Positions 9,834-58,734 are shown, counted from the first letter of the stretch. The stretch: DNA of 64,000 nt from Aliarcobacter lanthieri (GCF_013201625.1 NZ_CP053839.1:1302001-1366000), one strand, 5' to 3'. Made by a program: numbers and translations. The notes: a model not told the origin generated them from the letters alone.

Positions 9834-10831
9834 TTTTTTATATTTATTTGCTCTTCTAATTTTTTATGATTTGTAATTTGTGTATTAATCCTATTAATTG
9901 ATTCAATTATTGCTTTATCTGGTTTTTCTATTAATTTATCAGATAGAGTATATAACTCTTTTGCATTCTGATATTCTCCTTTACTCTCTTTAATAACTCC
10001 TAAATTATAAGCTGCTAAATAGCACCTATCATTTGTAGAATTTAAAAGTTGACTAAAAATCTCTTCTGCTCTATCTAAATGGTTATGTTTTAGATATTCT
10101 AAACCATTTTTTAAAAGTACTTCTTGTTCTTTTGTATATTTTATTTGAGGATCCTCAAATATTTTTATATAATATTTTTCTTCAGTTGGAGATATATTTG
10201 GTAAAAACTCATTTACAATATTATTAGATAAATAATCAAATACTGCACTTTTAGAAGGTAATCCTCCACCATAATCTAAACAAGATCTATAACTTGTATT
10301 TTCAAAGTAATTATTTGTATAAATAACATCACCTTTTTCTACATCAATCATTGATATATTAGCTTTTAAAGAGTATCTTGCATTTGTACACTGTACAAAA
10401 TATTCTTGTTGTCTATAACAATATATATCTATACATCTATATCTTCTTTCATAGTAATAATCTTTTTGAACATCTGCATTATCTATTTTTCCAGTTATAA
10501 GTGCTTGTGCACCTAAAAGTTCACCTACTTCTACACTATTATTTTTATTTGCTAAACCAGAATATTGAAATTTTTGTTCATTTAAAATATTATCTCTATC
10601 TTTACTAATAACAGTAAAATATGGCTTATCATCTACTTCTACTTTATATAAAGCTGACTCTATTTTCGATCCTAATGATATATCATTGTCATTCTCAAAT
10701 TTTAAAACTGCTATTTTTTTAGTTTTTGAAGCTCTATCGACTAAAGCTGGTTTAGTAGCTGTTATTAAAACTTTTTGACTACATCCTGATAATATAAATA
10801 TTAGTAGTATAGGTATTAAAACTATTTTCAT
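9830..10831 (-). CDS. CsgG-like outer-membrane lipoprotein with C-terminal helical repeats
   Basis: Lipobox LSGC (Cys17) follows a short signal. Residues 35-200 (KTKKIAVLKFENDND, LLGAQALITGKIDNADV, YSLKANISMIDVEKGDVIY) carry the CsgG/curli-assembly fold pattern: a beta strand with an F-x-N turn, an ALITGxI strand and an A-x-I-x-M-I-D-V strand. From about 240, LLKNGLEYLKHNHLDRAEEIFSQLL and AAYNLGVIKESKGEYQNAKELY look like two tetratricopeptide repeats. In curli systems CsgG forms a secretion pore; other members are LpoB- or FlgO-like structural lipoproteins. Neighbouring LPP20 proteins favour an envelope-structure role over curli export. Confidence 0.75.
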   Translation of the reverse strand: MKIVLIPILLIFILSGCSQKVLITATKPALVDRASKTKKIAVLKFENDNDISLGSKIESALYKVEVDDKPYFTVISKDRDNILNEQKFQYSGLANKNNSVEVGELLGAQALITGKIDNADVQKDYYYERRYRCIDIYCYRQQEYFVQCTNARYSLKANISMIDVEKGDVIYTNNYFENTSYRSCLDYGGGLPSKSAVFDYLSNNIVNEFLPNISPTEEKYYIKIFEDPQIKYTKEQEVLLKNGLEYLKHNHLDRAEEIFSQLLNSTNDRCYLAAYNLGVIKESKGEYQNAKELYTLSDKLIEKPDKAIIESINRINTQITNHKKLEEQINIKK

Positions 10832-44021: not shown

Positions 44022-44058
44022 ATAAATAAAAAGAAGATTTTACTCTCTTTTTATTTAT
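44022..44058 (-). terminator. Terminator of the adhesin gene
   Basis: A 13-bp perfect inverted repeat (ATAAATAAAAAGA and TCTTTTTATTTAT) around an 11-nt loop. It overlaps the adhesin stop codon and separates it from the LuxR-type gene. Confidence 0.7.
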
Positions 44059-47000
44059 AATGGTTGTTCAATTTCTTGCTGAACTTTTACTTTAACAGTC
44101 GGATCTAATGTATTCGTATATTCATAATATCCATTAGTAATTTCAGATGATTTCAGCCATTGATTATCATCTGCAAATGTCACCTTATCCTTATTAGTTC
44201 CATTTCCACCACCTAAAATTGTAATATTTATCTCTCCATTTTCTTTTTTACCCATATCTAAAACATCTTTTAGCGTTAAGTTTAGCAGTTCATTTTTAGC
44301 ACCATTATTAGAACCCAAATTGATAGTTGTTATATCTTTTAATCCAATATTATAATTTTCTCCAGTTTTTATATCTCCAATATTATCAAAGTTCATATTA
44401 AGCTCTTTATCAAAAGTAAATGTTCCAGAAATAGATTTTATTTCTACAAGATCTCCAGATATATCAACTTTATTTGACTCATAGTTAGTACCAGTTAGAG
44501 GATTCCCACTTTCATCTAGTTCTTGTGTCCAAGCTTTTGCAGTTACACTAGTAGTAGCTTTTGTATCCATAAATTGGATTTTATTTATATCATCTACTTT
44601 TATACCTGAAATTGTCCATTTAGAGCCATCCCAAACTGCTTGATTTGTTAAGCTTCCATCTTTTAATTTAAACTGTGCATTTGAACTCAGTCCATTAAGT
44701 TCAAGATTCATAACCTCACTACCATCAACATCTTTCATATTTGCATTTAGTTGTAGATCTGCCCACTGGAATACATTTTTAGTAGCTTTTGTACCACTAA
44801 TACTTTCAAAACCATCTGCAACAGATTCTATTTTTCCAGTAGAATTTATAGTTTTTTCAATAGGAGTTGATAAATTTTGCTCATATATAGATAGACTAAC
44901 ATCAAAATTAAAAGTTCCTGCCCAGTTTTCTGGAGCGTTTACATATATTTCAGGGATTGTATTACTTCCATTTGTTGGGATTAACCATTTATTTACCCCT
45001 ACATTTACTTTATCCCCATTTGGATTTAAAGTATAGTTTCCAGTTGAAGTTCCAATATTTGTAGCCATTTTTAAAGTTGTGCCATCCATATACCAAACTG
45101 TCATACCATTTGGTATTTTATCTAATACTATATTTCCTAGAGTTTCAGATTTATCTGTTATTACTAGTGGAACAGTTCCATCTGTAATTGTTATTTTTAT
45201 TGGATTTGCAAGTCCTGCAATAGCTAAATCTTCTGTTCCTGTTGCTACAACTGTACTAGCATCTAAATTTGTATCAATAACGGGAGTTACAGTAATAGTT
45301 TTATCTCCTTTTGAGTCTAAAGTTACAGTGCTTCCTATTTCGTTATTTTGTACACTTACTTCAAACTTCACTTCACCATCTCTATTATTTGCTGATTTAT
45401 ATGTTAATCCATCTATATCTCCAACTGAAAAAACAGACTTATCGCTCTTTTGAATACTATACACAGTATTCCCATTTGAATCAGTAGATGTAGATGAAAT
45501 TATATACCCAGCTGGTACAGTAAATGTTCCATTAGTCCCACCACCATCTACTATATCTTTCCAAGTTTCAATAATAGTTATATTAATAGTATTTCCTAGC
45601 ACTGTTTTAGTACCATCACTTGGATTTGATAGATTTATATTTATAATACTTGTTCCATCTTCATTTATATTATTTGCTGTAATAGTTACAGTCATAGGGT
45701 CTGTTACAGGTGTAATATCATTTTGATGATTATTTATTGGTGTACCCTCTTTAAATGTACCACCATCCCAAGTAGAAATCATTGCACTAAATGTCATCTT
45801 TCCATTTATATCTCCACCTGTATTCATATCTTTTGGTGGAGTTACTATAACATTTGATAGTTTAGTCATAATATCTGCTGCATTTCCATTTCCTACAACT
45901 ACATAGAAAGTTTTTCCACCTTCAACATAAGAGTAATCATATCCAGTTACAACTGTTCCAGTAGGAAAATCTGTTATTGTTATAGCATAATTTCCATTGT
46001 CTGGATGTCCATTTTCAGCAGTTACAACTATTGATTTTCCTAGATTATATTCATCTTGTTTTCCATCAGTTTTTGGATCACTATCATTGTCTTCATAGAT
46101 AGTTGTTGGTTGTGTACTTAAATTAAATAGTGGTGGAGTTCCATGTCCAGTTCCTGGAGTATAATCGTGTCCTTTTTCAATTTTTATAGTTTGTGAATCA
46201 CTCTTTACTTCTGCATCTCCACTATCCTTTGTATAAGTTGTGATTTTTATATCTCTATCTTCAAAGTTTGAACCAGGATGTACTTTAAAAGTAATTTCTG
46301 ATGAAGCACCATCTATATTAAGTGCTTTATCAGTTGGATTATTTATAACCCAAATACCATTGTGTGGGCTTCCATTGTATCCATAATATGTAGCACCAAT
46401 AACTTCTACTCCTTGAGGTACACCACTTATAACTATTTCTTGTACAGTTTCACTACCATCTTTGTCATCACTTGTAGTTTTAAAAGATACTTTAAATTCT
46501 GCACTAGGTTCTTTTATAGTTACAGTTTTATCTGTAATAGTTACTTTTGAATTGTCTACAGTAGTTATAGTATCTAGAGTCAATTTAGGTATATCTGTAA
46601 CAGCTTTAATATTTAACTCATAATCAAAGTTTGATGTTTTTGTATCAGATACTCCATTCGCTGTATCTTTTACGATATATTTTACATCAAATTTGTAGTT
46701 TCCATGAGTATGTTCTGTTGTATTTAGTGCATATATATTTTCCCATTGAGCTTTTGTTAATTCATAATATCCATCTACATTTTGTATTAAAGTTGTTACT
46801 GCTACTTTATCTTCACCATTTCCAATATATAAAGTGAAATCTTTAGATAAAATATCAGAAGCTTTTATCATAATACTCTCTAAAGTTTCATCATTATCTC
46901 CATTTTTATGAGCAATATCAAAATCAACTTTAAATATGCTATCTTCATTTCCTGTTGTAGATTTAGAAATTTCAGCCTCTGCGACAGGTGATACAAACAA

Positions 47001-50000
47001 TTTAACAGTTTGCTCAAAGTGTGTTTTACTACTATTTTCTCCAGACTGTTCTGTTGTAATATATTTTAATTTTATATCTCCTAATGTTCCACTAAAGTTT
47101 TTATCAAATTGTAATTTAATTTTGTCTAAATCTGTAGATTTTATTACATACTCATTTCCATATACCCTATATGTTGCACCATCTACCATAGTAACACCAG
47201 AAGGAAGAGTGATTTTAATAGATAGAACTTCTGAACCATCATTGTCATATGAACTTGGAGTATTTTTATAAATATCTTTTAGATAAAACACCTCATCTTC
47301 TATAGCCTTGATATATTTTGTTCCACCAATAGTTACAACTTTATCATCACTATCTACAAGTTCAGTATTTATAGGCTCATCTGCAATATTCTTTACTATT
47401 ACACTCATATCAAGAGGATTTCCACTATTGTATTGTTCTTTACTAATTATAGTTTGTCCATCTATTATAGCACTTGATACTTTTTCTCCACTTATTTTGA
47501 AAGTATAATCTTTATCATCATTGTGTGGTGGTATAAATGTTGGTAGTTTTGAGTTTTGATAATCTAATATCTCTACTTTATAAGTACCATCACCATTTAA
47601 AGATACAGAAATATTCCCAGTTTTTCCATCTGTTAAAACTGTTTTTGTTGTCCATTCACTACCATTTTTTGTATATTCAATAACTTGTCCATTTTCAACA
47701 CCAATTAATTTATAATTTTTTGTACTATTATCAAATATATACAAACTTCCACCAACTGGTACTTTATCTATGAAAATAGTTGCAGTTTCACCTTTTGCCA
47801 CTAAATTTGAACCTTTTGGTTCAATATTTAATTTTAAACCTTTTGTTGGGTCTGTAATATTTCCACTACTTGAAACAGCTCCTCCTGTTGTATTTAATTT
47901 ATTGTTATTTTCTCTTCCTGCATCTTCATTTCCAATAGCTTGTGCTATTTGAATAGTTTGATTTGATGGATCACTTATAACAACTGGATTTACATTTATC
48001 TTAAAGTTTACAGAGTCTGTTTTTATATCCCCCCATTTACTGCTATCAGAAATCTCTTCTACTCCTTTGTCTTGTACTTTTAAAGTGATAGTTCCATTTA
48101 CAGTTCCTGCATAGTATTCTGGGAATTTTATACTAAAATCAGGATCAGCATTTTTATTGTTTGCATCATTAAATACTATTGTAGCTTTTCCATTATCACT
48201 TGCTGTTACTGTGTAACTTTGTCCACCAATAGTTACAACTGTGCCTTGTGGTAAACCTGTGATTTCATAAGTTCTTTTTTCACTTCCATCTAAATCACCT
48301 TTTGTTCCACCATCTCCATTTAAAGCTCCACTTGTAGGAGATAAAATATTTTTGATATTTAATACAGTATCTTTTTGTTTATTTACATCTGTAAACGTAT
48401 ATGTTTTATCTGCATTACTTATAGTTCCATTTGAGTTATTGTCCCATTTTATAGATATATTATCTGTAACTGGTAGAATATTTACTGTCATATCTGCTGA
48501 TGTTTCTGATTTATACTCATCTTCTCCAATCAATGGTTTATTGTCATCATCTAACTCATAAGATGTTACTTTTATAGTAATTTTTATATCTGTATCATTA
48601 TCTTCTGCATGTTGGATTTTTAAGTTTTCATACTCTGTTCTTGTAAGATATAAAACATTTCCACCTTTTGCTGGTAGTGTTCCACTATGATGATAAGATG
48701 TATCTATATCTGTTCCACCTGAAGTTTTTACTATTACAATTTTTATTTCTTGATTATTTGATGAAATAGTTAAAACTTCATCATTTTCACTATATAGTTT
48801 TGCACCATTTATAGCTGAACCATTTGTAAATGTAAGAGTTATTTCCCCATTTCTTTCAGGATGATCTCCATTAGCTCCATTTTTATCTACTTGATCTTTT
48901 GATAAACTTGGTACTTTAAGTTCTAAAGCTACTTTATTTGTACCTTCTTGAGTATTTTTATTATCCTCATAAGTTTCTACATTCTTTACAAAAATAGTTG
49001 GTGCATCAGCTACTGGTTTTACATTTACTGTAACTGTTGCTGTTGCTTCATCTCCATCAAAATCTGTTACTGTATATGAGAACTGTGGGCTTTTTGTAAA
49101 ATCATAATTACTATAATCAGGTGATGGAGTGAATTTTACTGTACCATCTCCATGATTTAAAAGTTTTCCAATAGGATATTCTTTATTCGTATCCGATGGT
49201 TCATAAATATCAATTTCTGCACCTTTTGCAAGATCAATACCATTAATTTTAATAGTTCCATCTTTAAATGCTTCATTTGAAAGTCTAATAGTTGTATCTG
49301 TATCTTCATTTGTACTTACTGTTATAGGTTGTGCTACAGGTACAGAATCTACTACTGTTACATTAAAAGTTTTATTCACCGATGTTGTTCCATTTGATGT
49401 TACATTAAATTGGAATGGTAAAACAAAACTTTCATCATTAGTTGGTTTAATATGATCCATTGTTTCTAAAAGTTTAAAATCATATACATCATTTCCACTG
49501 CCATCTTTTTTAAGTTCTACTGTAAATACTGTTTTTCCATCTGTTCTTTTTGCTGTTAATATTGTTCCACTTTCGTTATAGCTATAAGTAATGTCTTGTC
49601 CATTACTTTTCTCAGTAGAAGTTATAATAGATTTATCAAAAGATACTGTATATGTACCATTATTTGGATTTTTAATACCCAAAGAATTATCTTTAGAGTC
49701 CTCTCTATCATCTGAAGAATTATTTAATCCATCTTCATAAACTATTGTATCTACAGGATTTCCTAACGTAATACCATCTTTTATAGTTCCAGTTACTGAT
49801 CTTTCAGCACCGTTTGGATTACCAATAGCAATATTCTCAAATTTGCCATCTTTTTGAGCTACATTTGTGATAGTTAATGTATAAACTTCATCTCCTTCAG
49901 AAGTAAAATCATCAATTGTTTTATTTGTAATTGGTAATTTATAAATACCATTTTCATCTTTTGGTGTAGATGATGTTATTTTTACAGTTTCTAGTCTTAT

Positions 50001-52649
50001 ATTTGAGAAATCAGCATTTTCTACAGTTCCTGTTGTTGAAGTATATTGTAATGTTACAGTTATTTCTTCTCCATCAGGAATTATTACTGGATCTCCATTT
50101 TTATCTACAAGTTGTATATGATGAACTAAATCCCAACCTTCTACAGTTTCAGCATTATTTATAATTTTTACATATACCGTATCTTCTTTTCCATATCCTT
50201 GTCCATCTACTGTTGGATTTTCACTAATAGGTGCATTTGTTGTTGGATCATTATCTGTAATAGTTGAAGTTACTGTATCTCTTGTTGTATCTATAGATGG
50301 GTTTTCATATTTACTTCCATCTATGATAGAATCTATTTTTACAGTAAATATTTCATTATTATCTCTTACATAATCATCATTTGTTTGTACGTCAAATACT
50401 TCTCCAAGAGATACTTCTTTGTCTTTTAAATATTGATAATCTTCACTTCCATCAAGTTGAGGTTTAACAGAATTTCCACCTTTTGCACCATCAGCTACAT
50501 CATATGTTGAAACTTTTACTTTACCATCTTGTATAAGTACATTATTGTCTTTATCAACAGCAACTGCTACATAGTACAATTTACCACTTTCAGGAGTTAT
50601 ATTGTTATCATTGTATACTAATTTTCCATTGCTATCAGTAATATCTGCAATTGTAATTGCAGAAGAAGTTACAGCAACAAGTAGAATTTTTACTTCTGTA
50701 CCATTATCATTTATTTCTGTAGTTGTAGTATTTGATGGATTTGGTACTTTTATAGTGTCTAATCCTGTATATTCATTGAATTTAATATTTTCAAATTCAT
50801 TAGTATCTATATCTTCTATTTTTAATGTATAACTTTCTTTCCCTTCTGTATAAACATCATCTTTTGTTTCAATTGTGAAATCTATAGATGATTTATCTTT
50901 GGGAATTTCAATAGTAAAAGTATCTTTTGTAGTGTCAGTAACTTCTATACCATTAATTTTCAATAAATCTTTTAAATCAGCTGGATTTGTTGTTGAACCA
51001 GAAAATTTAATAGTTACATCTGTAGGATTTGAAACTTTTACTTCATTTCCTTTATAATCAACAAGTTTAACTGTGTATGTAACTACTTCACCTTCAACTA
51101 CTGAAGATTTATTTGCTGTAATTACTGCATATACTGTATCTTCTGCTCCATAAGTAATACTATTTGTATCCGAACCACCCGAAACAATATCTGCATTTTT
51201 TGTTGTTGTATTATCTAATATTGTTGTTGTTACATATTTTTGATTTCCATTTTTATCTCCAATTTTTATATTTTCGAATTCACCAGTTGATTCTACCCCT
51301 GCTATCTCAATACTAAAATTTTCTCCATTATCTGCTACATAATCATCTAATGTCTTTACTTCAAAAATTTGTGATTTTGAAGTTCCCTCTTTAATGATAA
51401 TATCTTCTTTTATATATTCACCATCTTTATACTCTGTATCATCATTTGAAGTTGTTATATTTTTGTATACTACTGTTACTTTTGTATCTTTTGTTACAAT
51501 TACTTCTTTTCCATCTTTATCTACAATTTGAACTATATATTTTGCTATATCACCTTCATTTACAATTTTATCACCACTAACAAGTACAAATACAGTATCT
51601 TCTTCTCCATAAGTTCCATATGCACTATCAGGTTTATTTGGATCAAGAGGGTTATTATTTGCTAAAGGATTATCTAAGATAGTCCCTATTCCCTCTGATT
51701 TTACTATATTTACATTTCCAATTGGATTTGTTAAAGTTACTTTAAATTGTTCACTTTTTTCATAATAGTAATCATCTTTTATAGGAATTTTTATTTCTCC
51801 TACAGAACTACCACTTAAAATTGTAACAACTCCTGTAGAATGGACATAATCTTTACCATCCTCAGCTGTAATATTACTTGTAGCAAAGTCTACAGAAATA
51901 TTCCCAGATGCTGGTCCATCTAAAGCTACAGTAAATACCATATATCCATCTTGTTCATACATAGTTACATCATCAATACTCAAATTTGCAGGGTGAATAG
52001 ATGTTGGTGGAGTTACTGTTGGTGGAGTTACTGTTGGTGGAGTTACATTTTCACCTGGTGTAGTAATTGGTCTATCACCTGGATTATTATTTCCTAAAGG
52101 TTTTGAATTTAAAGAATCATATTCATCTCCTTTTTCTACCTCTTTATAAGTTTGAGTTTTTACCCAAAATTTTTTTCTTAGATCACTTATAACATCTACA
52201 ATATCTCCATCTCTATTTGCAAAAGTACCGATACTTCCTTCTTCAATTTCTTCATCTTCTTCACCGGCTGTTGTTTCTTCTTCAGTTATATCTAGAAAAC
52301 CATCAAAATTGGCATCTGTTAAATCACTCCAAACATCAGTACTATTTTTATATGTATCTAAAATTTGTTCTATTCCTTCTCTTGTAAAAAACAACTCTTC
52401 ATTTCCAAATGCTGTTTCTATTAAAGAGCTATCTATTAATTGTTTTTGACCTTCAGATAAAACAATTACATCATTTCCATCTAAAACTATTTCTATCTTA
52501 GCAGAACTTGAATTTGAATCAACTCCATAAACTGTGTCATCTTCAAATATAATATCCCCTACTTTTAACTCATTTATATTATCATTTTTATCTTTTACTA
52601 AGAACTTTCCATTCTCTATAAATTGTACTTTTCCAGCTTGAGTTGACAT
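44055..52649 (-). CDS. Giant type I secreted adhesin with retention module (LapA-like)
   Basis: 2864 residues. Residues 1 to about 125 match the retention module that keeps LapA-type adhesins in their outer-membrane pore (GKVQFIENGKFLVKD, LSEGQKQLIDSSLI). An acidic linker and three VTPPT units (202-216) follow, then a Calx-beta domain (about 222-332), several long repeats starting YG-x-EDTVY, cadherin-like and VCBS-like repeats (SYTVTDFDGDEATATVTV), and a C-terminus (LTLKDVLDM, INITILGGGNG) typical of type I secretion targets. No RTX nonapeptide run, transporter, LapG or LapD gene is nearby. The start has AAGGA upstream. It would mediate attachment. Confidence 0.88.
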   Translation of the reverse strand: MSTQAGKVQFIENGKFLVKDKNDNINELKVGDIIFEDDTVYGVDSNSSSAKIEIVLDGNDVIVLSEGQKQLIDSSLIETAFGNEELFFTREGIEQILDTYKNSTDVWSDLTDANFDGFLDITEEETTAGEEDEEIEEGSIGTFANRDGDIVDVISDLRKKFWVKTQTYKEVEKGDEYDSLNSKPLGNNNPGDRPITTPGENVTPPTVTPPTVTPPTSIHPANLSIDDVTMYEQDGYMVFTVALDGPASGNISVDFATSNITAEDGKDYVHSTGVVTILSGSSVGEIKIPIKDDYYYEKSEQFKVTLTNPIGNVNIVKSEGIGTILDNPLANNNPLDPNKPDSAYGTYGEEDTVFVLVSGDKIVNEGDIAKYIVQIVDKDGKEVIVTKDTKVTVVYKNITTSNDDTEYKDGEYIKEDIIIKEGTSKSQIFEVKTLDDYVADNGENFSIEIAGVESTGEFENIKIGDKNGNQKYVTTTILDNTTTKNADIVSGGSDTNSITYGAEDTVYAVITANKSSVVEGEVVTYTVKLVDYKGNEVKVSNPTDVTIKFSGSTTNPADLKDLLKINGIEVTDTTKDTFTIEIPKDKSSIDFTIETKDDVYTEGKESYTLKIEDIDTNEFENIKFNEYTGLDTIKVPNPSNTTTTEINDNGTEVKILLVAVTSSAITIADITDSNGKLVYNDNNITPESGKLYYVAVAVDKDNNVLIQDGKVKVSTYDVADGAKGGNSVKPQLDGSEDYQYLKDKEVSLGEVFDVQTNDDYVRDNNEIFTVKIDSIIDGSKYENPSIDTTRDTVTSTITDNDPTTNAPISENPTVDGQGYGKEDTVYVKIINNAETVEGWDLVHHIQLVDKNGDPVIIPDGEEITVTLQYTSTTGTVENADFSNIRLETVKITSSTPKDENGIYKLPITNKTIDDFTSEGDEVYTLTITNVAQKDGKFENIAIGNPNGAERSVTGTIKDGITLGNPVDTIVYEDGLNNSSDDREDSKDNSLGIKNPNNGTYTVSFDKSIITSTEKSNGQDITYSYNESGTILTAKRTDGKTVFTVELKKDGSGNDVYDFKLLETMDHIKPTNDESFVLPFQFNVTSNGTTSVNKTFNVTVVDSVPVAQPITVSTNEDTDTTIRLSNEAFKDGTIKINGIDLAKGAEIDIYEPSDTNKEYPIGKLLNHGDGTVKFTPSPDYSNYDFTKSPQFSYTVTDFDGDEATATVTVNVKPVADAPTIFVKNVETYEDNKNTQEGTNKVALELKVPSLSKDQVDKNGANGDHPERNGEITLTFTNGSAINGAKLYSENDEVLTISSNNQEIKIVIVKTSGGTDIDTSYHHSGTLPAKGGNVLYLTRTEYENLKIQHAEDNDTDIKITIKVTSYELDDDNKPLIGEDEYKSETSADMTVNILPVTDNISIKWDNNSNGTISNADKTYTFTDVNKQKDTVLNIKNILSPTSGALNGDGGTKGDLDGSEKRTYEITGLPQGTVVTIGGQSYTVTASDNGKATIVFNDANNKNADPDFSIKFPEYYAGTVNGTITLKVQDKGVEEISDSSKWGDIKTDSVNFKINVNPVVISDPSNQTIQIAQAIGNEDAGRENNNKLNTTGGAVSSSGNITDPTKGLKLNIEPKGSNLVAKGETATIFIDKVPVGGSLYIFDNSTKNYKLIGVENGQVIEYTKNGSEWTTKTVLTDGKTGNISVSLNGDGTYKVEILDYQNSKLPTFIPPHNDDKDYTFKISGEKVSSAIIDGQTIISKEQYNSGNPLDMSVIVKNIADEPINTELVDSDDKVVTIGGTKYIKAIEDEVFYLKDIYKNTPSSYDNDGSEVLSIKITLPSGVTMVDGATYRVYGNEYVIKSTDLDKIKLQFDKNFSGTLGDIKLKYITTEQSGENSSKTHFEQTVKLFVSPVAEAEISKSTTGNEDSIFKVDFDIAHKNGDNDETLESIMIKASDILSKDFTLYIGNGEDKVAVTTLIQNVDGYYELTKAQWENIYALNTTEHTHGNYKFDVKYIVKDTANGVSDTKTSNFDYELNIKAVTDIPKLTLDTITTVDNSKVTITDKTVTIKEPSAEFKVSFKTTSDDKDGSETVQEIVISGVPQGVEVIGATYYGYNGSPHNGIWVINNPTDKALNIDGASSEITFKVHPGSNFEDRDIKITTYTKDSGDAEVKSDSQTIKIEKGHDYTPGTGHGTPPLFNLSTQPTTIYEDNDSDPKTDGKQDEYNLGKSIVVTAENGHPDNGNYAITITDFPTGTVVTGYDYSYVEGGKTFYVVVGNGNAADIMTKLSNVIVTPPKDMNTGGDINGKMTFSAMISTWDGGTFKEGTPINNHQNDITPVTDPMTVTITANNINEDGTSIININLSNPSDGTKTVLGNTINITIIETWKDIVDGGGTNGTFTVPAGYIISSTSTDSNGNTVYSIQKSDKSVFSVGDIDGLTYKSANNRDGEVKFEVSVQNNEIGSTVTLDSKGDKTITVTPVIDTNLDASTVVATGTEDLAIAGLANPIKITITDGTVPLVITDKSETLGNIVLDKIPNGMTVWYMDGTTLKMATNIGTSTGNYTLNPNGDKVNVGVNKWLIPTNGSNTIPEIYVNAPENWAGTFNFDVSLSIYEQNLSTPIEKTINSTGKIESVADGFESISGTKATKNVFQWADLQLNANMKDVDGSEVMNLELNGLSSNAQFKLKDGSLTNQAVWDGSKWTISGIKVDDINKIQFMDTKATTSVTAKAWTQELDESGNPLTGTNYESNKVDISGDLVEIKSISGTFTFDKELNMNFDNIGDIKTGENYNIGLKDITTINLGSNNGAKNELLNLTLKDVLDMGKKENGEINITILGGGNGTNKDKVTFADDNQWLKSSEITNGYYEYTNTLDPTVKVKVQQEIEQPL
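52003..52047 (-). repeat. Three tandem 15-bp repeats in the adhesin gene
   Basis: GTTGGTGGAGTTACT occurs three times without a gap (the last copy differs in its final base). On the coding strand each unit gives five residues, VTPPT. The in-frame unit could expand or contract by slippage and change the linker after the retention module. Confidence 0.85.
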
Positions 52650-52791: not shown

Positions 52792-52806
52792 ATTAACATA
52801 TAATTA
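52792..52806. repeat. Left 15-bp direct repeat, candidate attL
   Basis: ATTAACATATAATTA, identical to 55926-55940. It lies between the adhesin leader and the element. A competing longer but imperfect repeat starts at 52921. Confidence 0.5.
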
Positions 52807-52920
52807 GAAAAGCAAATGATTAAAACATATTAAACAAACTAACAAAAGCCTTTAATAGCACTCTTACAGACATTCTTATTTTATTTAAAATTTTAAATAT
52901 ATGGTTTAATATTCTATTCT

Positions 52921-52957
52921 TTTGTACAAATTTAACACACTTTGTACAGTGTGTACA
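52921..52957. repeat. TGTACA box cluster
   Basis: TGTACA occurs at 52923, 52943 and 52952; TTTGTACA recurs with a 20-bp period, and CACACT/AGTGTG flank the second box as an inverted repeat. The first 20 bases match 18 of 20 at 55871-55890, across the integrase stop codon. Candidate integrase or Rep binding sites, or an alternative attachment core. Confidence 0.5.
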
Positions 52958-53155
52958 TACAATTATTTATATTACATATTGACAATACTAATAAATTTAA
53001 TTATAATTATTAAATTAGTCGTATAAGAAATATTTATATAAATCGATTAAGTCTTAATATATGTCGCAACAAATTTTTGTGTAGGTCGATAATTCATACA
53101 AACAAATCAAAAGTTATTTTTAAAGGCTCAATTTTTTATTTATAAAAAATGAGCA

Positions 53156-53205
53156 AACAAACGGTTTTTTAGTTATTTACACAATAATATTTTAATCCGT
53201 TTGTT
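53156..53205. repeat. 9-bp inverted repeat before rep
   Basis: AACAAACGG (53156-53164) and CCGTTTGTT (53197-53205) are exact complements with a 32-nt spacer. It lies 115 nt upstream of the rep start codon. May be part of an origin or an operator. Confidence 0.45.
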
Positions 53206-53223
53206 ACAGAGTACAGAAGTAAA

Positions 53224-53275
53224 AAGGCTTTTTTGACTTAATCGTGTAGGTTACGGAGCGATTGTCAAAAGCCCT
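53224..53275. repeat. Large imperfect hairpin before rep, candidate replication origin
   Basis: The arms 53224-53244 and 53259-53275 pair through AAGG, GGC/GCC, TTTTGAC/GTCAAAA and AATCG/CGATT around a 14-nt loop TGTAGGTTACGGAG. It lies 45 nt before the rep start, the place where rolling-circle elements often hold their nick or priming site. A related GTGTAGGTCGAT occurs at 53079. Confidence 0.4.
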
Positions 53276-53320
53276 TGATTACTTTTAAAAAAGTTACTAC
53301 ATAAATTAAAAGGAATAAAA

Positions 53321-54382
53321 ATGTATGGATTATCACAAGATGATTTTACTAGTATAGATAGTAAACTCATAAAACAAGAAAAATATATAAAAAATATGTT
53401 TTTTAATTTTGGAATTGAAAATGAACAAAAGTCTATTTTAGATTTTACATATTCAGCAAATTTAAATCCTAATAAATATTTTGCAGAAATGAATAATAGA
53501 ATAAATAGTATTTTCAAATATGCAAATGAAAAAAAGTTAAAACCAGTTTTTTGTACTATTACTGCACCTAGTAAATATCATCAAACTGATAAAAATAGAA
53601 AACTCATATTATCTCCAAATCAAACTGCAAAAGACTTAACTCAAACTTTTAATAAATTTACTAATATACAAGTTTTTCAAAAACTAAGAAAAGAGTTAGG
53701 AGAAAGTCTAACTTATTTTAGAGTAAATGAGCCACATAAGAGTGGAGTTCCACATACTCATATAATGCTATTTTTACCTAATCACTATATTTTAGAAGTA
53801 AAACAAAAATTTTATGAATATTTTACAAATAAAGTAAGATGGGGTAATAATGTAAAAAGCTTAGATTTTAGATATACATTTTACAATGTTAAAGGGGCTA
53901 TATCCTATTTAATGAAATATATAACTAAAACTTTTAAGAATGAGAATAACTCAAAGAATAAAGCTTGGTATTGGTATATAAAAAATAATGTAAGGCGATT
54001 TTCTTGTTCAAGAACTTTAGCCCCTTTAATGGTTTATAGAAAAATTAGATATTTTTTTAAAGATAAATATCAAGATGACTATTTAGAAATTTCAAAACTA
54101 TTAAAAGAAAAGAATATTCTTAGGTTATTTGATGATACAACTTATAATTATATGTTTTATAATAAATCAACTGGTGAAATAGAAGAAATAAATATATGGC
54201 AGAAAAATACAGATTTAATATTAAGGAGTAGAATAAAAAAAGATAAAATAATATCTTTAAAATATTCTAAAAAAGAATTTAAAACAAATTTAATAGCATT
54301 TGTATCAGATTTTGAAAAATATATTTATTCAAAAAAAATGAATAAATTCATTTTAATGCCAGTTATTCCATCTTTACTTTAA
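53321..54382 (+). CDS. Two-tyrosine HUH replication endonuclease (phiX174/P2 gpA type)
   Basis: 353 residues. FCTITAPSKYH at 78-88 is motif 1, VPHTHIMLFLP with His145 and His147 is the metal-binding HUH motif, and YLMKYITK with Tyr196 and Tyr200 is the two-tyrosine catalytic motif (compare YVAKYVNK in phiX174 gpA). Such proteins nick and religate one strand to start rolling-circle replication. AAAGGAATAAAA precedes the ATG. The gene ends at a TAA, after which the same frame stays open for 57 codons, so the native C-terminus is probably lost. It is the first of three genes. Confidence 0.85.
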   Translation: MYGLSQDDFTSIDSKLIKQEKYIKNMFFNFGIENEQKSILDFTYSANLNPNKYFAEMNNRINSIFKYANEKKLKPVFCTITAPSKYHQTDKNRKLILSPNQTAKDLTQTFNKFTNIQVFQKLRKELGESLTYFRVNEPHKSGVPHTHIMLFLPNHYILEVKQKFYEYFTNKVRWGNNVKSLDFRYTFYNVKGAISYLMKYITKTFKNENNSKNKAWYWYIKNNVRRFSCSRTLAPLMVYRKIRYFFKDKYQDDYLEISKLLKEKNILRLFDDTTYNYMFYNKSTGEIEEINIWQKNTDLILRSRIKKDKIISLKYSKKEFKTNLIAFVSDFEKYIYSKKMNKFILMPVIPSLL

Positions 54383-54556
54383 GATTATCAACTAAATAAT
54401 TATTTCAATATATTAAACAAAAATATAGATAATATAAATTTAATTCATTTTGGAATTACAAAAAATGAAATGATAAAAAGAGGTTTTTTACAAGAAGATT
54501 ATATTAATCCTGCTTTATATACTCCAATTTTAGGAGAATATAATGAGTTTAGTTGA
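54383..54556 (+). pseudogene. Detached C-terminal remnant of the rep gene
   Basis: Directly after the rep TAA the same frame reads 57 codons (starting DYQLNNYFNILNKN, ending PILGEYNEFS) to a TGA at 54554. A single change of CAA to TAA would explain the stop. Without internal start plus ribosome site it is not likely to be translated alone. It overlaps the next gene by 14 nt and holds its GGAG ribosome site, normal for a coupled pair. Confidence 0.5.
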
Positions 54557-54839
54557 TATTAGTACAATAAATTTAATTCCAAAAGTTCTTGAAGAAATGC
54601 AAAATCTTAAAAAAGATATACACGAATTAAAACAACATTTAAAACCTAAATATGATTTGAGTAGAAGAAATGGAGTTATGAAATATTTAAATATTTCAGA
54701 TAGTACAATATCTAAATATATAAAAGAAGGTACTTTTAAAGAAGGTTATCACTATTATAGAGAAATAAAGGGAAGAAAATCTATAATAAAATATGTAAGC
54801 GGTGCTATTGAAGAGTTCAAAAAGGACAAAACAAAATGA
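54543..54839 (+). CDS. Small coiled-coil and helix-turn-helix protein (excisionase-like)
   Basis: 98 residues. Residues 14-38 (LEEMQNLKKDIHELKQHLK) form a coiled coil, and from about 43 RRNGVMKYLNISDSTISKYI is a helix-turn-helix of the MerR/AlpA type common in excisionases and replication regulators, followed by a wing (HYYREIKGRKSIIKY). GGAG precedes the ATG. It overlaps the integrase start by 4 nt. Likely an excisionase or a repressor of rep. Confidence 0.72.
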   Translation: MSLVDISTINLIPKVLEEMQNLKKDIHELKQHLKPKYDLSRRNGVMKYLNISDSTISKYIKEGTFKEGYHYYREIKGRKSIIKYVSGAIEEFKKDKTK

Positions 54840-55885
54840 AACTTTACAATAGAAACGGGATTTTATACATCTATGTTAATGGTGTTCGTAAAAGTAGCGG
54901 TTTGAAAGATACAAAAGAAAATCGTAAACTACTAGAAAACCATTATAAAAATGATGAGTTCTATGAAAAATTTAATGTTAAAAATAAAGGTAAGACTATA
55001 ATTGAATTTTGTGAAGAAGTCTTGATTGAGAAAGAAAAAAGACTTCAACCAACGACAATAAATACCTACTATGGTTTATTTTCAAGTAGGATTATACCTT
55101 TTTTTGATAAAAAATATCCACATGAGATAAGCCCTTTTATGTTAAAAGAATGGTATAAAACTTTTAAAGATAGAAGTACATTAAATACTTGTGTAGCTGG
55201 AATTTTAAAACCAGCTTTTGAAAATGCCATTATAGATGGATATATAAAAACAAGCCCTTTTATAGTTAGCTTCCCTACTTTAAAAAGTGATTATGAAATA
55301 AAACCTTTTAATTTACAAGAAATAAAACTAATTTTAGATAATGCTGATGGTTGGTTTAAAAACTTTTTAGGTATTGCATTTTTTACTGGTGCAAGAACTG
55401 GTGAAATTCTAGCTTTAGAGTGGAAAGATATAAATTTTGAAGAGAATACTATATCTATAACGAAAACTAGAACTATGGGATTAACGAAAACTCCTAAAAC
55501 TAGGAGTAGTTACAGAACAATAGATATGCTTATACAATGCGAAACTTTTTTAAAAGAACAAAGAAAGATAACTGGACTAAGTGAAAGTTTGTTTGTTTTA
55601 AAAGGTTATAAAAACAAAAAGTTATATAATAGTTCCTCACTTATATTATATTGGAAAAAAATATTAGAAAAATGTAAGTTAGAATATAGAAGCATTTATC
55701 AAACCAGGCATAGTTTTGCTAGTAATATGCTATCTAACAAAGAAGATATATTTTGGGTTTCTCAGATGCTAGGTCATAAAAGTATAAATATAACAAGTGA
55801 AAAATATTCTAAATATATAAAAAGTAATAGAGATAAAAAAACTACTTTTTTAGACAATGAATATTTATATTTTGTACAAAATTGA
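54836..55885 (+). CDS. Tyrosine-type site-specific recombinase/integrase
   Basis: 349 residues. The catalytic set is readable: Arg187 in FTGARTGEIL, Lys221 in TPKTRSSYR, Arg291 in YQTRHSFAS (the usual first His is Tyr288, an accepted variant), His314 in MLGHKSINIT and the nucleophile Tyr324 in SEKYSKY. Residues 50-150 form the SAM-like core-binding domain. It would cut and join the element ends. The ATG overlaps the upstream stop, so the three genes are likely one transcript. Confidence 0.93.
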   Translation: MKLYNRNGILYIYVNGVRKSSGLKDTKENRKLLENHYKNDEFYEKFNVKNKGKTIIEFCEEVLIEKEKRLQPTTINTYYGLFSSRIIPFFDKKYPHEISPFMLKEWYKTFKDRSTLNTCVAGILKPAFENAIIDGYIKTSPFIVSFPTLKSDYEIKPFNLQEIKLILDNADGWFKNFLGIAFFTGARTGEILALEWKDINFEENTISITKTRTMGLTKTPKTRSSYRTIDMLIQCETFLKEQRKITGLSESLFVLKGYKNKKLYNSSSLILYWKKILEKCKLEYRSIYQTRHSFASNMLSNKEDIFWVSQMLGHKSINITSEKYSKYIKSNRDKKTTFLDNEYLYFVQN

Positions 55886-55890
55886 CACAC
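55871..55890. repeat. Right copy of an imperfect 20-bp repeat at the integrase 3' end
   Basis: TTTGTACAAAATTGACACAC matches 52921-52940 at 18 of 20 positions in the same orientation. It contains the integrase stop codon, as attachment sites often do. It competes with the 15-bp repeat as the crossover site. Confidence 0.45.
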
Positions 55891-55925
55891 CAATATCTTT
55901 AAACACCAACATATAATGATAGTCT

Positions 55926-55940
55926 ATTAACATATAATTA
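55926..55940. repeat. Right 15-bp direct repeat, candidate attR
   Basis: ATTAACATATAATTA, identical to 52792-52806, 41 nt after the integrase stop. A partial copy, AACATATAAT, lies 21 bp upstream at 55908. Confidence 0.5.
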
Positions 55941-55986
55941 ATCTATTAGTTATAAAATCTCGTAAAAATCTAACAAAGGATACTTT

Positions 55987-58734
55987 TTGAATTTAAAAAA
56001 TATTTTGTTCTCTTTTAAAACCACCCTGCTATTACTGGCTATTTTGGGTATGGGAGCTGGAGTTGCTACATTCATAGAAAATGATTATGGTACATCATCA
56101 GCTAGAGTTTTAGTATATAATAATCTTTGGTATGAAATTATTATGGTTTTAACTACTATAAATCTAATAGGAATAATCTATAGATTTAAAATGTGGAAGA
56201 ATCTTCCTAGGTTTCTATTTCACTTCTCATTTGTAGTTATCTTAGTAGGTGCAATAATTACTAGGTATGTTGGATATGAAGGTGTTATGCAAATACCAGA
56301 AGGTGATACAACAAATCAAATGATTTCACTAGATCCTTATTTACAAGTAACAGTAAAAGATGGTGAGAGAGTAATTGCTTATGAAGAATATCAAAAAGAA
56401 TTCACTTCATTACTTCCTGAAATAAATAACTTCTCTCACACAATATCTTTTGATAATAACAAATTAATTTTAGATTATAAAAACTTCCAATTTGAAAAAA
56501 AAGAACAAGCTAGTATGGGATTACTTAGCCTTGAAGTTAGTTTAAATGATAAAAAAGAGTTTATTCGTGTTCCAGGGCAAAGAGGACAAATAGGGATACC
56601 AAGAGAACTACAATTTGATAAATATACAGTTATCTTAGAATATGGTTCAAAATTTATTGAATTACCATTTTCAATAAGATTAAATGAATTTCAATTAGAT
56701 AGATATCCTGGAAGTATGGCTCCATCATCTTATGCTAGTGAAGTTACAGTTATAAAAGATGAAAAAACTTATGACTATAGAATCTTTATGAATAGAACTT
56801 TAAGTGAAGGGAATTTTTTATTTTTCCAAAGTTCATATTTTCCAGATGAGTCAGGAACAGTACTATCTGTAAATAATGACCCAGGTAAATGGCCAACATA
56901 TTTTGGATATTTTTTACTTACTTTAGGATTAGTTTTAAACTTCTTTGATAAAAAATCAAGATTTAGGAAACTTATAAAATATGTAGGTGATAAAAACATA
57001 GCTATATTTGTTTTAGCACTCTGTATTAGCTTAGGTTCACCTCTACAAGCAGTTGAACCAACAGAACAAGGAGATGTAGATAGAATCAATATAACAGTTG
57101 ATTATCTAAATAAATTAAAAGATGAATCTAATTTAACAGCAGATAAATTCGGACATTTAATTGTACAAAGTAGTGGTGGAAGAATGAAACCATTAGCAAC
57201 TTTAAATCGAGAGATTGTTCAAAAGCTAAGTGGAAGTGCATCATTTTTAGGTATGAATTCAGATCAAATAATATTAGGAATGCTTTCTCGTCCTGATGTT
57301 TGGAAAGATGTAAAAATTATAAAAATCCAAACTCCAAAATTAAAAAAATTCTTAGGAATTGATGAAAAAGAGCAATATATGTCTTTTTCAGAAGCTTTTG
57401 ATGAAAAAGGTGAATATATTTTAACTAGTGAATCTGAAAAAGCATTCCAAACAAAACCAATTGAACGTGGAACTTATGAAAAGGATATCATAAAAGTTGA
57501 AGAAAAATTAAATATTATTTATTCTGTTTTTAATGGTGCTTTATTAAATATTTTTCCAAGAGTTTATGATGAACATAGCCCTGATGATAACTTTAAATGG
57601 TATTCTCCAATAGAAGCTATGCAAGAATTTACTGGACAAAATCAAGCAGCTATAAACTCTGTAATTAGAGGATTAATGAACTCTTTAGTTGAAAGTGATT
57701 GGGAAAGTGCGAATAACTATATAGATATGATAGCTTTATATCAAGATAAAGTTGGAGATAATATAAAACCTTCAAAATCAAAAGTTAATGCAGAAATCAT
57801 ATTCAATAAATTAGATATATTCTTTAAATTAACTGGTGCATATATGCTTTTAGGTCTTGTGATGGTTGTCTTAGCATTTATAATTATATTCAAACCAGAA
57901 TTCAAAGCTCAGAAAACAACAAAAATTATATTTATTATATTATCAATTTTATTTGCTATACAAACTTTTGGTATGGGATATAGATGGTACTTATCAGGAC
58001 ATGCTCCATGGAGTGATATATATGAAACTTTAGTTTATATCTCTTGGTCAGCTATTTTTGCTGGAGTAATATTTTTTAGAAAATCTTTATTGGCTTTAGG
58101 TGCAGCAGTTATAATTGCAGGAATTTTTATGTTTACTGCTCACTTAACAGATGTTGATCCACAAATTACAAATTTAGTTCCAGTTTTAAAATCATATTGG
58201 TTAACTATCCACGTATCTATTTTAACTGCTTCTTATGGTTTCTTTGGACTTAGTGCAATATTAGGGTTTTTAACTTTAATTATGTTTATGTTCAGAAAAA
58301 ACAAACCTCATTTAGATGATATTATCAAACATATTAGTGCAATAAATGAAATATCTTTAATTATTGGTTTAGCTTGTATTACAATAGGAAACTTTCTTGG
58401 TGGAGTTTGGGCAAATGAATCATGGGGAAGATATTGGGGATGGGATCCAAAAGAGACTTGGGCTTATGTTTCAATAGTTGTTTATGCAATAGTTATTCAC
58501 TTAAGATTTGTAAAATCTTTAAATACTCCTTATGTTTTAGCAACTGCTTCTCTTTTAGCATTTAGTTCAATTATGATGACTTATTTAGGAGTAAATTTCT
58601 ATTTATCTGGAATGCACTCTTATGCAACAGGTGATCCTGTTCCTATTCCTACATGGGCGTATGTAACAGTTACAACAGCCTTTATTGCTATATTATTAGC
58701 TTATAGAAATAGAGATTTAAGAAATATTGAATAA
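55987..58734 (+). CDS. ccsBA: Fused cytochrome c maturation protein CcsBA (ResB-ResC)
   Basis: 915 residues joining both halves of the System II heme lyase. The N-terminal part is ResB/CcsB-like (TM helices, periplasmic region). The C-terminal part (from about 625) is CcsA with the tryptophan-rich heme motif WGRYWGWDPKETWAYV. The fusion carries heme across the inner membrane and attaches it to apocytochromes c. The TTG start has AAAGGATAC in front. It ends at a strong terminator. The fused form is typical of Campylobacter, Helicobacter and Arcobacter. Confidence 0.94.
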   Translation: MNLKNILFSFKTTLLLLAILGMGAGVATFIENDYGTSSARVLVYNNLWYEIIMVLTTINLIGIIYRFKMWKNLPRFLFHFSFVVILVGAIITRYVGYEGVMQIPEGDTTNQMISLDPYLQVTVKDGERVIAYEEYQKEFTSLLPEINNFSHTISFDNNKLILDYKNFQFEKKEQASMGLLSLEVSLNDKKEFIRVPGQRGQIGIPRELQFDKYTVILEYGSKFIELPFSIRLNEFQLDRYPGSMAPSSYASEVTVIKDEKTYDYRIFMNRTLSEGNFLFFQSSYFPDESGTVLSVNNDPGKWPTYFGYFLLTLGLVLNFFDKKSRFRKLIKYVGDKNIAIFVLALCISLGSPLQAVEPTEQGDVDRINITVDYLNKLKDESNLTADKFGHLIVQSSGGRMKPLATLNREIVQKLSGSASFLGMNSDQIILGMLSRPDVWKDVKIIKIQTPKLKKFLGIDEKEQYMSFSEAFDEKGEYILTSESEKAFQTKPIERGTYEKDIIKVEEKLNIIYSVFNGALLNIFPRVYDEHSPDDNFKWYSPIEAMQEFTGQNQAAINSVIRGLMNSLVESDWESANNYIDMIALYQDKVGDNIKPSKSKVNAEIIFNKLDIFFKLTGAYMLLGLVMVVLAFIIIFKPEFKAQKTTKIIFIILSILFAIQTFGMGYRWYLSGHAPWSDIYETLVYISWSAIFAGVIFFRKSLLALGAAVIIAGIFMFTAHLTDVDPQITNLVPVLKSYWLTIHVSILTASYGFFGLSAILGFLTLIMFMFRKNKPHLDDIIKHISAINEISLIIGLACITIGNFLGGVWANESWGRYWGWDPKETWAYVSIVVYAIVIHLRFVKSLNTPYVLATASLLAFSSIMMTYLGVNFYLSGMHSYATGDPVPIPTWAYVTVTTAFIAILLAYRNRDLRNIE

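What the first reader, a model, noticed from the sequence alone, without database searches (positions are those of the whole stretch)
52792..55940. A three-gene integrated element (rep, HTH, integrase) bracketed by a 15-bp direct repeat
Seen: all three genes are on one strand, overlap or nearly abut, and lie between identical ATTAACATATAATTA copies with core genes outside. Known: gpA-type HUH proteins replicate circular elements; tyrosine integrases insert them. Inference: this is a minimal self-replicating and integrating unit, perhaps a plasmid or phage satellite, with neither transfer nor capsid genes. At about 3.1 kb it would be among the smaller of such units.
Basis: partly seen in the sequence, partly recalled or inferred. 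Interest (0 to 1): 0.72.

Follow-up and report, generated by a model that had tools for sequence, protein, structure and literature searches.

The report
Tiny capsid-less phage-derived integrated element
A 3.1-kb mobile DNA element has inserted itself into the promoter of a cytochrome-assembly gene in an Aliarcobacter-like bacterium; it carries the copying machinery of a filamentous phage and an integrase from another kind of element but no coat genes, and its copying gene is cut short by a stop codon.

Summary
Rep (Phage_GPA), an HTH protein and a tyrosine integrase lie between two identical 15-mers that occur nowhere else in the 2.28-Mb genome. In the sister species G030 the two flanks, joined at the 15-mer, align without a break: a clean empty site.

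Three things were missed. (1) Rep has an in-frame TAA at codon 354 of 411; the frame stays open for 57 more codons that still match relatives. (2) Rep groups with Zot- and secretin-bearing inovirus prophages of the same genus. A hairpin followed by CTTGATTACTTTTAAAAAAGTTACTACA just upstream is the likely nicking origin; its core occurs 7 times in 31 genomes, always beside such a Rep. (3) The integrase, HTH protein and left end match a different, capsid-less element, so the unit is a hybrid.

The target is a TTAA-N7-TTAA site in the ccsBA promoter, present in 27 of 28 assessable congeners; the exception, G006, carries another element there.

Relatives include a monophyletic set of 26 capsid-less elements across Campylobacterota.

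Most likely it is an integrative rolling-circle element built from inovirus parts, now impaired or helper-dependent. Excision, replication and packaging are untested.

The parts
52792..52806 (+). attL, ATTAACATATAATTA (core TTAA-CATATAA-TTAG)
   Evidence: exact repeat; junction with the empty site of G030
52816..52939 (.). left-end DNA 73% identical to the DNA just inside attL of the G005 mini-element (L085)
   Evidence: blastn E 2e-11
52920..52940 (+). putative integrase arm site TTTTGTACAAATTTAACACAC
   Evidence: 90% direct repeat with 55870-55890 at the other end; role inferred
53156..53205 (+). hairpin AACAAACGG/CCGTTTGTT in the non-coding leader
   Evidence: DNA fold of 53120-53320, z = -4.4; no homologue found in relatives; role unknown
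53226..53273 (+). origin hairpin (GGCTTTT...AAAAGCC with an inner AATCG/CGATT stem)
   Evidence: 84% identical over 43 nt to a stretch of inovirus locus L098
53274..53301 (+). putative double-strand origin CTTGATTACTTTTAAAAAAGTTACTACA; nick inferred between G53277 and A53278
   Evidence: 0 mismatches in inovirus loci L137, L139, L143, L144, L145; core found 7 times in 31 genomes, each beside this Rep family
53321..54382 (+). rep, gpA-type HUH replication endonuclease, 353 aa, truncated by TAA; HUH H145/H147, Y196/Y200
   Evidence: PF05840 E 2.7e-20, phrog_91 1.6e-23; invariant residues
54383..54556 (+). read-through tail of rep: 57 sense codons, then TGA
   Evidence: in-frame; about 60% identical to its two nearest relatives with third-position excess
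54543..54839 (+). HTH protein, 98 aa, likely excisionase/regulator
   Evidence: weak HTH_17, excisionase and AlpA hits; always next to this integrase family; function inferred
54836..55885 (+). tyrosine integrase, 349 aa; R187, K221, R291, H314, Y324
   Evidence: PF00589 2.1e-20, phrog_1 2e-54; residues invariant in alignment A2
55870..55890 (+). putative right arm site TTTTGTACAAAATTGACACAC
55926..55942 (+). attR, ATTAA-CATATAA-TTAAT: 5-bp inverted arms around a 7-bp overlap, 42 nt after the int stop
   Evidence: same spacing in L085 and L086; TTAA-N7-TTAA in 11 of 14 related integrase loci
55987..58734 (+). ccsBA (cytochrome c biogenesis), host gene whose promoter is the target; not part of the element
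   Evidence: TTAA-N7-TTAA about 60-70 nt upstream in 27 of 28 assessable congeners

Best explanation
A 3.1-kb cargo-free integrative element made of two modules: an origin plus Rep from the inovirus lineage of this genus, and an HTH-integrase cassette with attachment ends from a small capsid-less element. SHOWN by sequence: precise insertion at a TTAA-N7-TTAA site in the ccsBA promoter, an empty site in the sister species, the truncated Rep, the conserved origin-like motif, and conflicting ancestries of Rep and Int. INFERRED: Int recombines attP with the promoter site and leaves a promoter-like sequence in front of ccsBA; the HTH protein steers excision; the excised circle is nicked by Rep at CTTG^A and copied as a rolling circle. 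The present copy has lost Rep's C-terminal 57 residues and carries no ssDNA-binding gene. It is therefore probably impaired for independent replication, either a decaying element or one that needs a related inovirus Rep in trans.
For: Empty site. 15-mer unique in the genome. Rep tree: window sister to inovirus L088 (100/98) inside a set of one window row plus eight inoviruses (100/99). Int tree: window with L105, L085, L086, L087 (100/99), far from the integrase of L088. Left end 73% identical to L085. Origin motif and hairpin. Stop codon and open tail. No Zot hit and only one Phage_GPA protein in this genome.
Against: No circular junction, transcript or nicking was observed. The in-frame TAA could be a sequencing error, although the genome is a single contig. 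The truncated Rep may still work: the L085 Rep ends even earlier and keeps the catalytic motifs. The 7-bp overlap (CATATAA) differs from that of the G030 empty site (CTAAGAG), so the target in the recipient had either diverged or been matched loosely. Only one copy of this exact three-gene form was found.
Confidence: 0.7

Rival explanations
1. Remnant of a complete integrase-bearing inovirus prophage that lost its coat and assembly genes by deletion.
For: Rep and origin are inovirus-type; G018 (L090) carries an inovirus with the same Rep, HTH and Int families.
Against: The left end matches a capsid-less mini-element, not an inovirus; in the 513-nt leader only the origin region has strong matches to inovirus loci; Int is closest to mini or other elements, and only 49% identical to that of L090.
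Confidence: 0.2
2. Active helper-dependent satellite of Aliarcobacter inoviruses, using the helper's Rep, coat and export proteins (RS1 or TLC-phi logic).
For: 28-bp origin motif identical to that of five inovirus loci, so a helper Rep could plausibly act on it; a replication module without morphogenesis genes is how TLC-phi is described (PMC4246890).
Against: No Zot-bearing inovirus in this genome; no packaging signal shown; gpA-type Reps often act in cis (own knowledge).
Confidence: 0.15
3. Fully autonomous integrative plasmid; the truncated Rep is functional and the missing genes are dispensable.
For: Catalytic HUH and tyrosine residues lie well before the stop; the L085 Rep is naturally shorter.
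Against: The lost tail is conserved in the window's own Rep clade and shows third-position excess like the rest of rep.
Confidence: 0.1
4. No mobile element: genes resident at this locus and a chance repeat.
For: A shared 15-mer arises in 4 of 2000 shuffles of the AT-rich flanks.
Against: Gap-free empty site in G030, conserved promoter motif in 27 congeners, same-family element in the same promoter in G006.
Confidence: 0.01

Closest known systems
Inovirus prophages of Aliarcobacter/Arcobacter (L088, L089, L090, L137, L143-L145)
   Same: Rep clade, origin motif, Rep-HTH-Int gene order in several
   Different: They have Zot ATPase, secretin and coat-region genes; the window element has none, its integrase is of another clade than most of theirs, and its Rep is truncated
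Capsid-less Campylobacterota mini-elements (L085, L152-L157, L162, L164-L168, L174-L176, L180, L182)
   Same: No Zot or secretin, Rep-HTH-Int at the right end, direct-repeat ends where tested, about 3-4 kb; L085 shares integrase (76%), HTH (72%) and left end
   Different: They carry an RHH protein and an OB-fold protein, and a different Rep clade with the origin variant CTTGACTACTTATAAAAAAGTTGTGGAC or similar
Filamentous-phage satellites RS1 and TLC-phi of Vibrio cholerae (PMC4246890, PMC11389934)
   Same: Replication module without structural genes; integrates in the chromosome
   Different: TLC-phi uses host XerC/XerD at dif; here the element encodes its own tyrosine integrase and uses a promoter site. 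Helper dependence is not shown
phiX174/P2 gpA replication initiators
   Same: Phage_GPA family, HUH plus paired tyrosines; CTTG^A resembles the phiX174 nick site (own knowledge)
   Different: Short protein (353 aa) in an integrative element
Pf prophages of Pseudomonas (PMC7379572)
   Same: Filamentous phage that carries its own HTH excisionase
   Different: Pf is a complete phage; the role of the HTH here is inferred

Membership tests
Integrative element moved by a tyrosine recombinase | Direct-repeat ends and an empty site in relatives | tested here: met
Integrative element moved by a tyrosine recombinase | Integrase with complete R-K-R-H-Y set | tested here: met
   R187, K221, R291, H314, Y324 invariant
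Integrative element moved by a tyrosine recombinase | Excised circle with attP junction | not testable with these tools
   no reads or DNA at hand
gpA-type rolling-circle replicon | Phage_GPA/HUH protein with two tyrosines | tested here: met
   H145, H147, Y196, Y200
gpA-type rolling-circle replicon | Full-length initiator | tested here: not met
   TAA at codon 354 of 411
gpA-type rolling-circle replicon | Conserved nick-site motif beside rep | tested here: met
   cleavage itself not tested
Inovirus (filamentous phage) | Zot/pI ATPase (hallmark, PMC6813254) and coat genes | tested here: not met
   none between the att sites; no Zot hit in the genome
Filamentous-phage satellite | Replication module without morphogenesis genes | tested here: met
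Filamentous-phage satellite | Packaging and transfer by a helper phage | not testable with these tools
   no helper in this genome; needs experiment
RHH-OB-Rep-HTH-Int mini-elements (class described here) | Rep in the capsid-less Rep clade | tested here: not met
   window Rep is in the inovirus clade
RHH-OB-Rep-HTH-Int mini-elements (class described here) | RHH and OB-fold genes left of rep | tested here: not met
   no ORF on the rep strand and no credible tblastn trace in 52807-53320

The most novel reading that the evidence does not exclude
The 26-member capsid-less clade and the window hybrid are a family of integrase-bearing satellites of Campylobacterota inoviruses. They spread in the helper's filamentous particles, and the window element has captured a helper-type origin that lets a phage Rep copy it even though its own Rep is truncated.
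Probability: 0.15. Interest if true: 0.7.

Novelty: new variant of a known kind. Interest (0 to 1): 0.45.

Why it matters
It shows the replication half of filamentous phages living apart from the virion half and recombining with a free-standing integrase cassette, and it points to a recurring class of 3.6-4.0 kb elements. Surveys keyed on the Zot/pI gene, such as PMC6813254, would by design not see it. The conserved 28-bp origin motif and the TTAA-N7-TTAA promoter target give direct, testable handles on both replication and integration, and integration in the ccsBA promoter raises a simple question about cytochrome c maturation.

Tried and rejected
Chance repeat: rejected by the empty site. 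tRNA or tmRNA target: no such gene in the window. Known plasmid or phage record: the listed Rep matches in the phage and plasmid collections are below 30% identity (P2-like, PM2), the listed integrase matches at most about 36%. Single-protein scans of viral contigs and genome contigs with Rep found nothing; the alignment query was needed. Traces of the RHH and OB-fold genes in the leader: none credible. Circular contigs among short relatives: no terminal overlap in 12 checked. Solved relatives by sequence: none credible for Rep or the OB-fold protein. Zot hits near 20-23 bits in most congeners lie in frames of about 785-813 aa and are not inovirus Zot. Charybdis elements (PMC12324425, abstract read) carry no hallmark Rep and are unrelated. 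Schmid et al. 2024 (plasmid as inovirus satellite) is not held, so it was not compared.

Full report
WHAT IS THERE. The 15-mer ATTAACATATAATTA occurs at 52792-52806 and 55926-55940 and nowhere else exactly in the 2.28-Mb single-contig genome. Between the copies lie a Phage_GPA Rep (53321-54382), a 98-aa HTH protein (54543-54839) and a 349-aa tyrosine integrase (54836-55885). Named homologues place the window in the genus Aliarcobacter or close to it.

EMPTY SITE. A shared 15-mer between AT-rich flanks is not overwhelming by itself (4 of 2000 shuffles). But in G030, the congener with the closest CcsBA protein (91%), the adhesin and ccsBA genes are neighbours without the element, and 366 nt of the window's joined flanks align to it end to end at 82% with no break at the joint. 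Upstream of ccsBA, 27 of 28 assessable congeners keep a TTAA-N7-TTAA motif about 60-70 nt before the start codon, some with a second copy one period (11 bp) away; one more genome (G024) is cut by its contig end. The exception is G006: there a different, 7.9-kb element with an integrase 55% identical to the window's sits in the same promoter.

INTEGRATION SITE. In the window attR reads ATTAA-CATATAA-TTAAT, 42 nt after the int stop. L085 and L086 have the motif at the same +42. Over 14 members of the integrase family, 11 have TTAA-N7-TTAA within 140-160 nt after int, against about 8% expected per 140 nt. A second copy of the 7-bp core bounds the element in five: window (3134 bp), G005 (3612), G006 (7877), G002 (7682) and G067 (8146). 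The core looks like a tyrosine-recombinase site with a 7-bp overlap; that the overlap is 7 bp is inferred from these comparisons. The G030 motif has a different middle (CTAAGAG), so the ancestral target is not fixed. After insertion the TTAAC-N6-TTAAT spacing and the promoter-proximal DNA of ccsBA remain, so a promoter probably survives (inference).

REP IS TRUNCATED. The rep frame meets TAA at 54380-54382, then stays open for 57 codons to TGA at 54554-54556, overlapping the HTH start as in several relatives. Relatives read PVVPSKLKDYQLNNYY or similar where the window reads PVIPSLL*DYQLNNYF. The tail keeps about 60% identity and third-position excess (10/6/21 differences by codon position against L088, compared with 93/55/137 in the body), so the stop is recent or a sequencing error. 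HUH (H145, H147) and Y196/Y200 precede it. A naturally shorter Rep exists in L085, so loss of function is likely but not certain.

ORIGIN. Immediately upstream of rep is a hairpin (53226-53273) followed by CTTGATTACTTTTAAAAAAGTTACTACA (53274-53301). The motif is identical in inovirus loci L137, L139, L143, L144 and L145 (L143 and L145 are the same loci as L089 and L090); capsid-less elements have CTTGACTACTTATAAAAAAGTTGTGGAC or near variants. Of 45 loci with the motif, 39 have an upstream 70-mer that folds better than shuffles (z < -2), with differing stem sequences. With one mismatch allowed, the core is found 7 times in 31 genomes, each time next to this Rep family. It resembles the phiX174 gpA nick site (own knowledge). 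Cleavage is not shown.

TWO ANCESTRIES. In a 55-row Rep tree the window is sister to the inovirus L088 (100/98) within an otherwise all-inovirus set of nine (100/99); 26 Reps from loci without Zot or secretin form one clade (100/99) elsewhere. In the Int tree the window groups with L105, L085, L086 and L087 (100/99), none of them an inovirus, while the integrase of L088 is far away. The DNA just inside attL is 73% identical to the same place in L085. Hence the element joins an inovirus origin and Rep to the integrase, HTH and end of a mini-element. The direction of the exchange is not known.

THE CAPSID-LESS CLASS. Most of the 26 have the order RHH (about 125 aa), an 88-94 aa protein, Rep, HTH, Int. 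The 88-94 aa protein is predicted as a beta-rich OB-like fold (pLDDT 80; 16 sequences), and its top PDB matches are almost all single-stranded-DNA-binding proteins, though no match reaches E 0.001. Eight of the elements show 17-29 bp direct repeats 3.6-4.0 kb apart. They come from Sulfurimonas, Sulfurovum, Arcobacteraceae and other, mostly metagenome-assembled, genomes. Flanks of up to 6 kb were read, so 'no Zot' is firm where both ends are seen and weaker on short contigs.

FUNCTION. Integration by Int is strongly supported. Excision, Rep nicking, HTH as excisionase and helper use are inferred. There is no Zot hit and only one Phage_GPA protein in this genome, so no resident helper. The best reading is a hybrid integrative rolling-circle element that is now impaired or depends on a visiting inovirus.

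NOVELTY. Satellites of filamentous phages without structural genes are known (RS1 and TLC-phi; PMC4246890, PMC11389934), and an inovirus survey used the pI/Zot gene as marker (PMC6813254). In the papers that could be searched I found no description of integrase-bearing capsid-less elements of this kind in Campylobacterota; the library is partial. I rate it a new variant of a known kind.

Noticed in passing
L094 (G006:C1:1206000-1225000), core at about 10088-10102 and second core at 2215: A different 7.9-kb element with a 55%-identical integrase and a weak Rep_trans-like protein sits in the same ccsBA promoter of another species: a recurrent integration hotspot.
   Followed up: partly
L152-L157, L162, L164-L168, L174-L176, L180, L182, L085: Monophyletic set of capsid-less RHH/OB-fold/Rep/HTH/Int elements in Campylobacterota, bounded at about 3.6-4.0 kb in eight cases; repeats in L165 and L167 look like tRNA gene ends.
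   Followed up: partly
55908-55920: Partial copy of the att core (CAACATATAATGA) shortly before attR, possibly a second half-site.
   Followed up: no
upstream of ccsBA in L064-L067, L070, L073, L074: The att motif is part of TTAAC repeats at 11-bp spacing near the -10 box, as expected for a response-regulator operator; the integrase may target a regulator binding site.
   Followed up: no
G005 (L085 and L101): One genome carries both a mini-element and a Zot-bearing inovirus, a natural system for testing helper use.
   Followed up: no
44055-52649: 2864-aa adhesin-like protein with a VTPPT repeat near its N-terminus, neighbour of the element.
   Followed up: no
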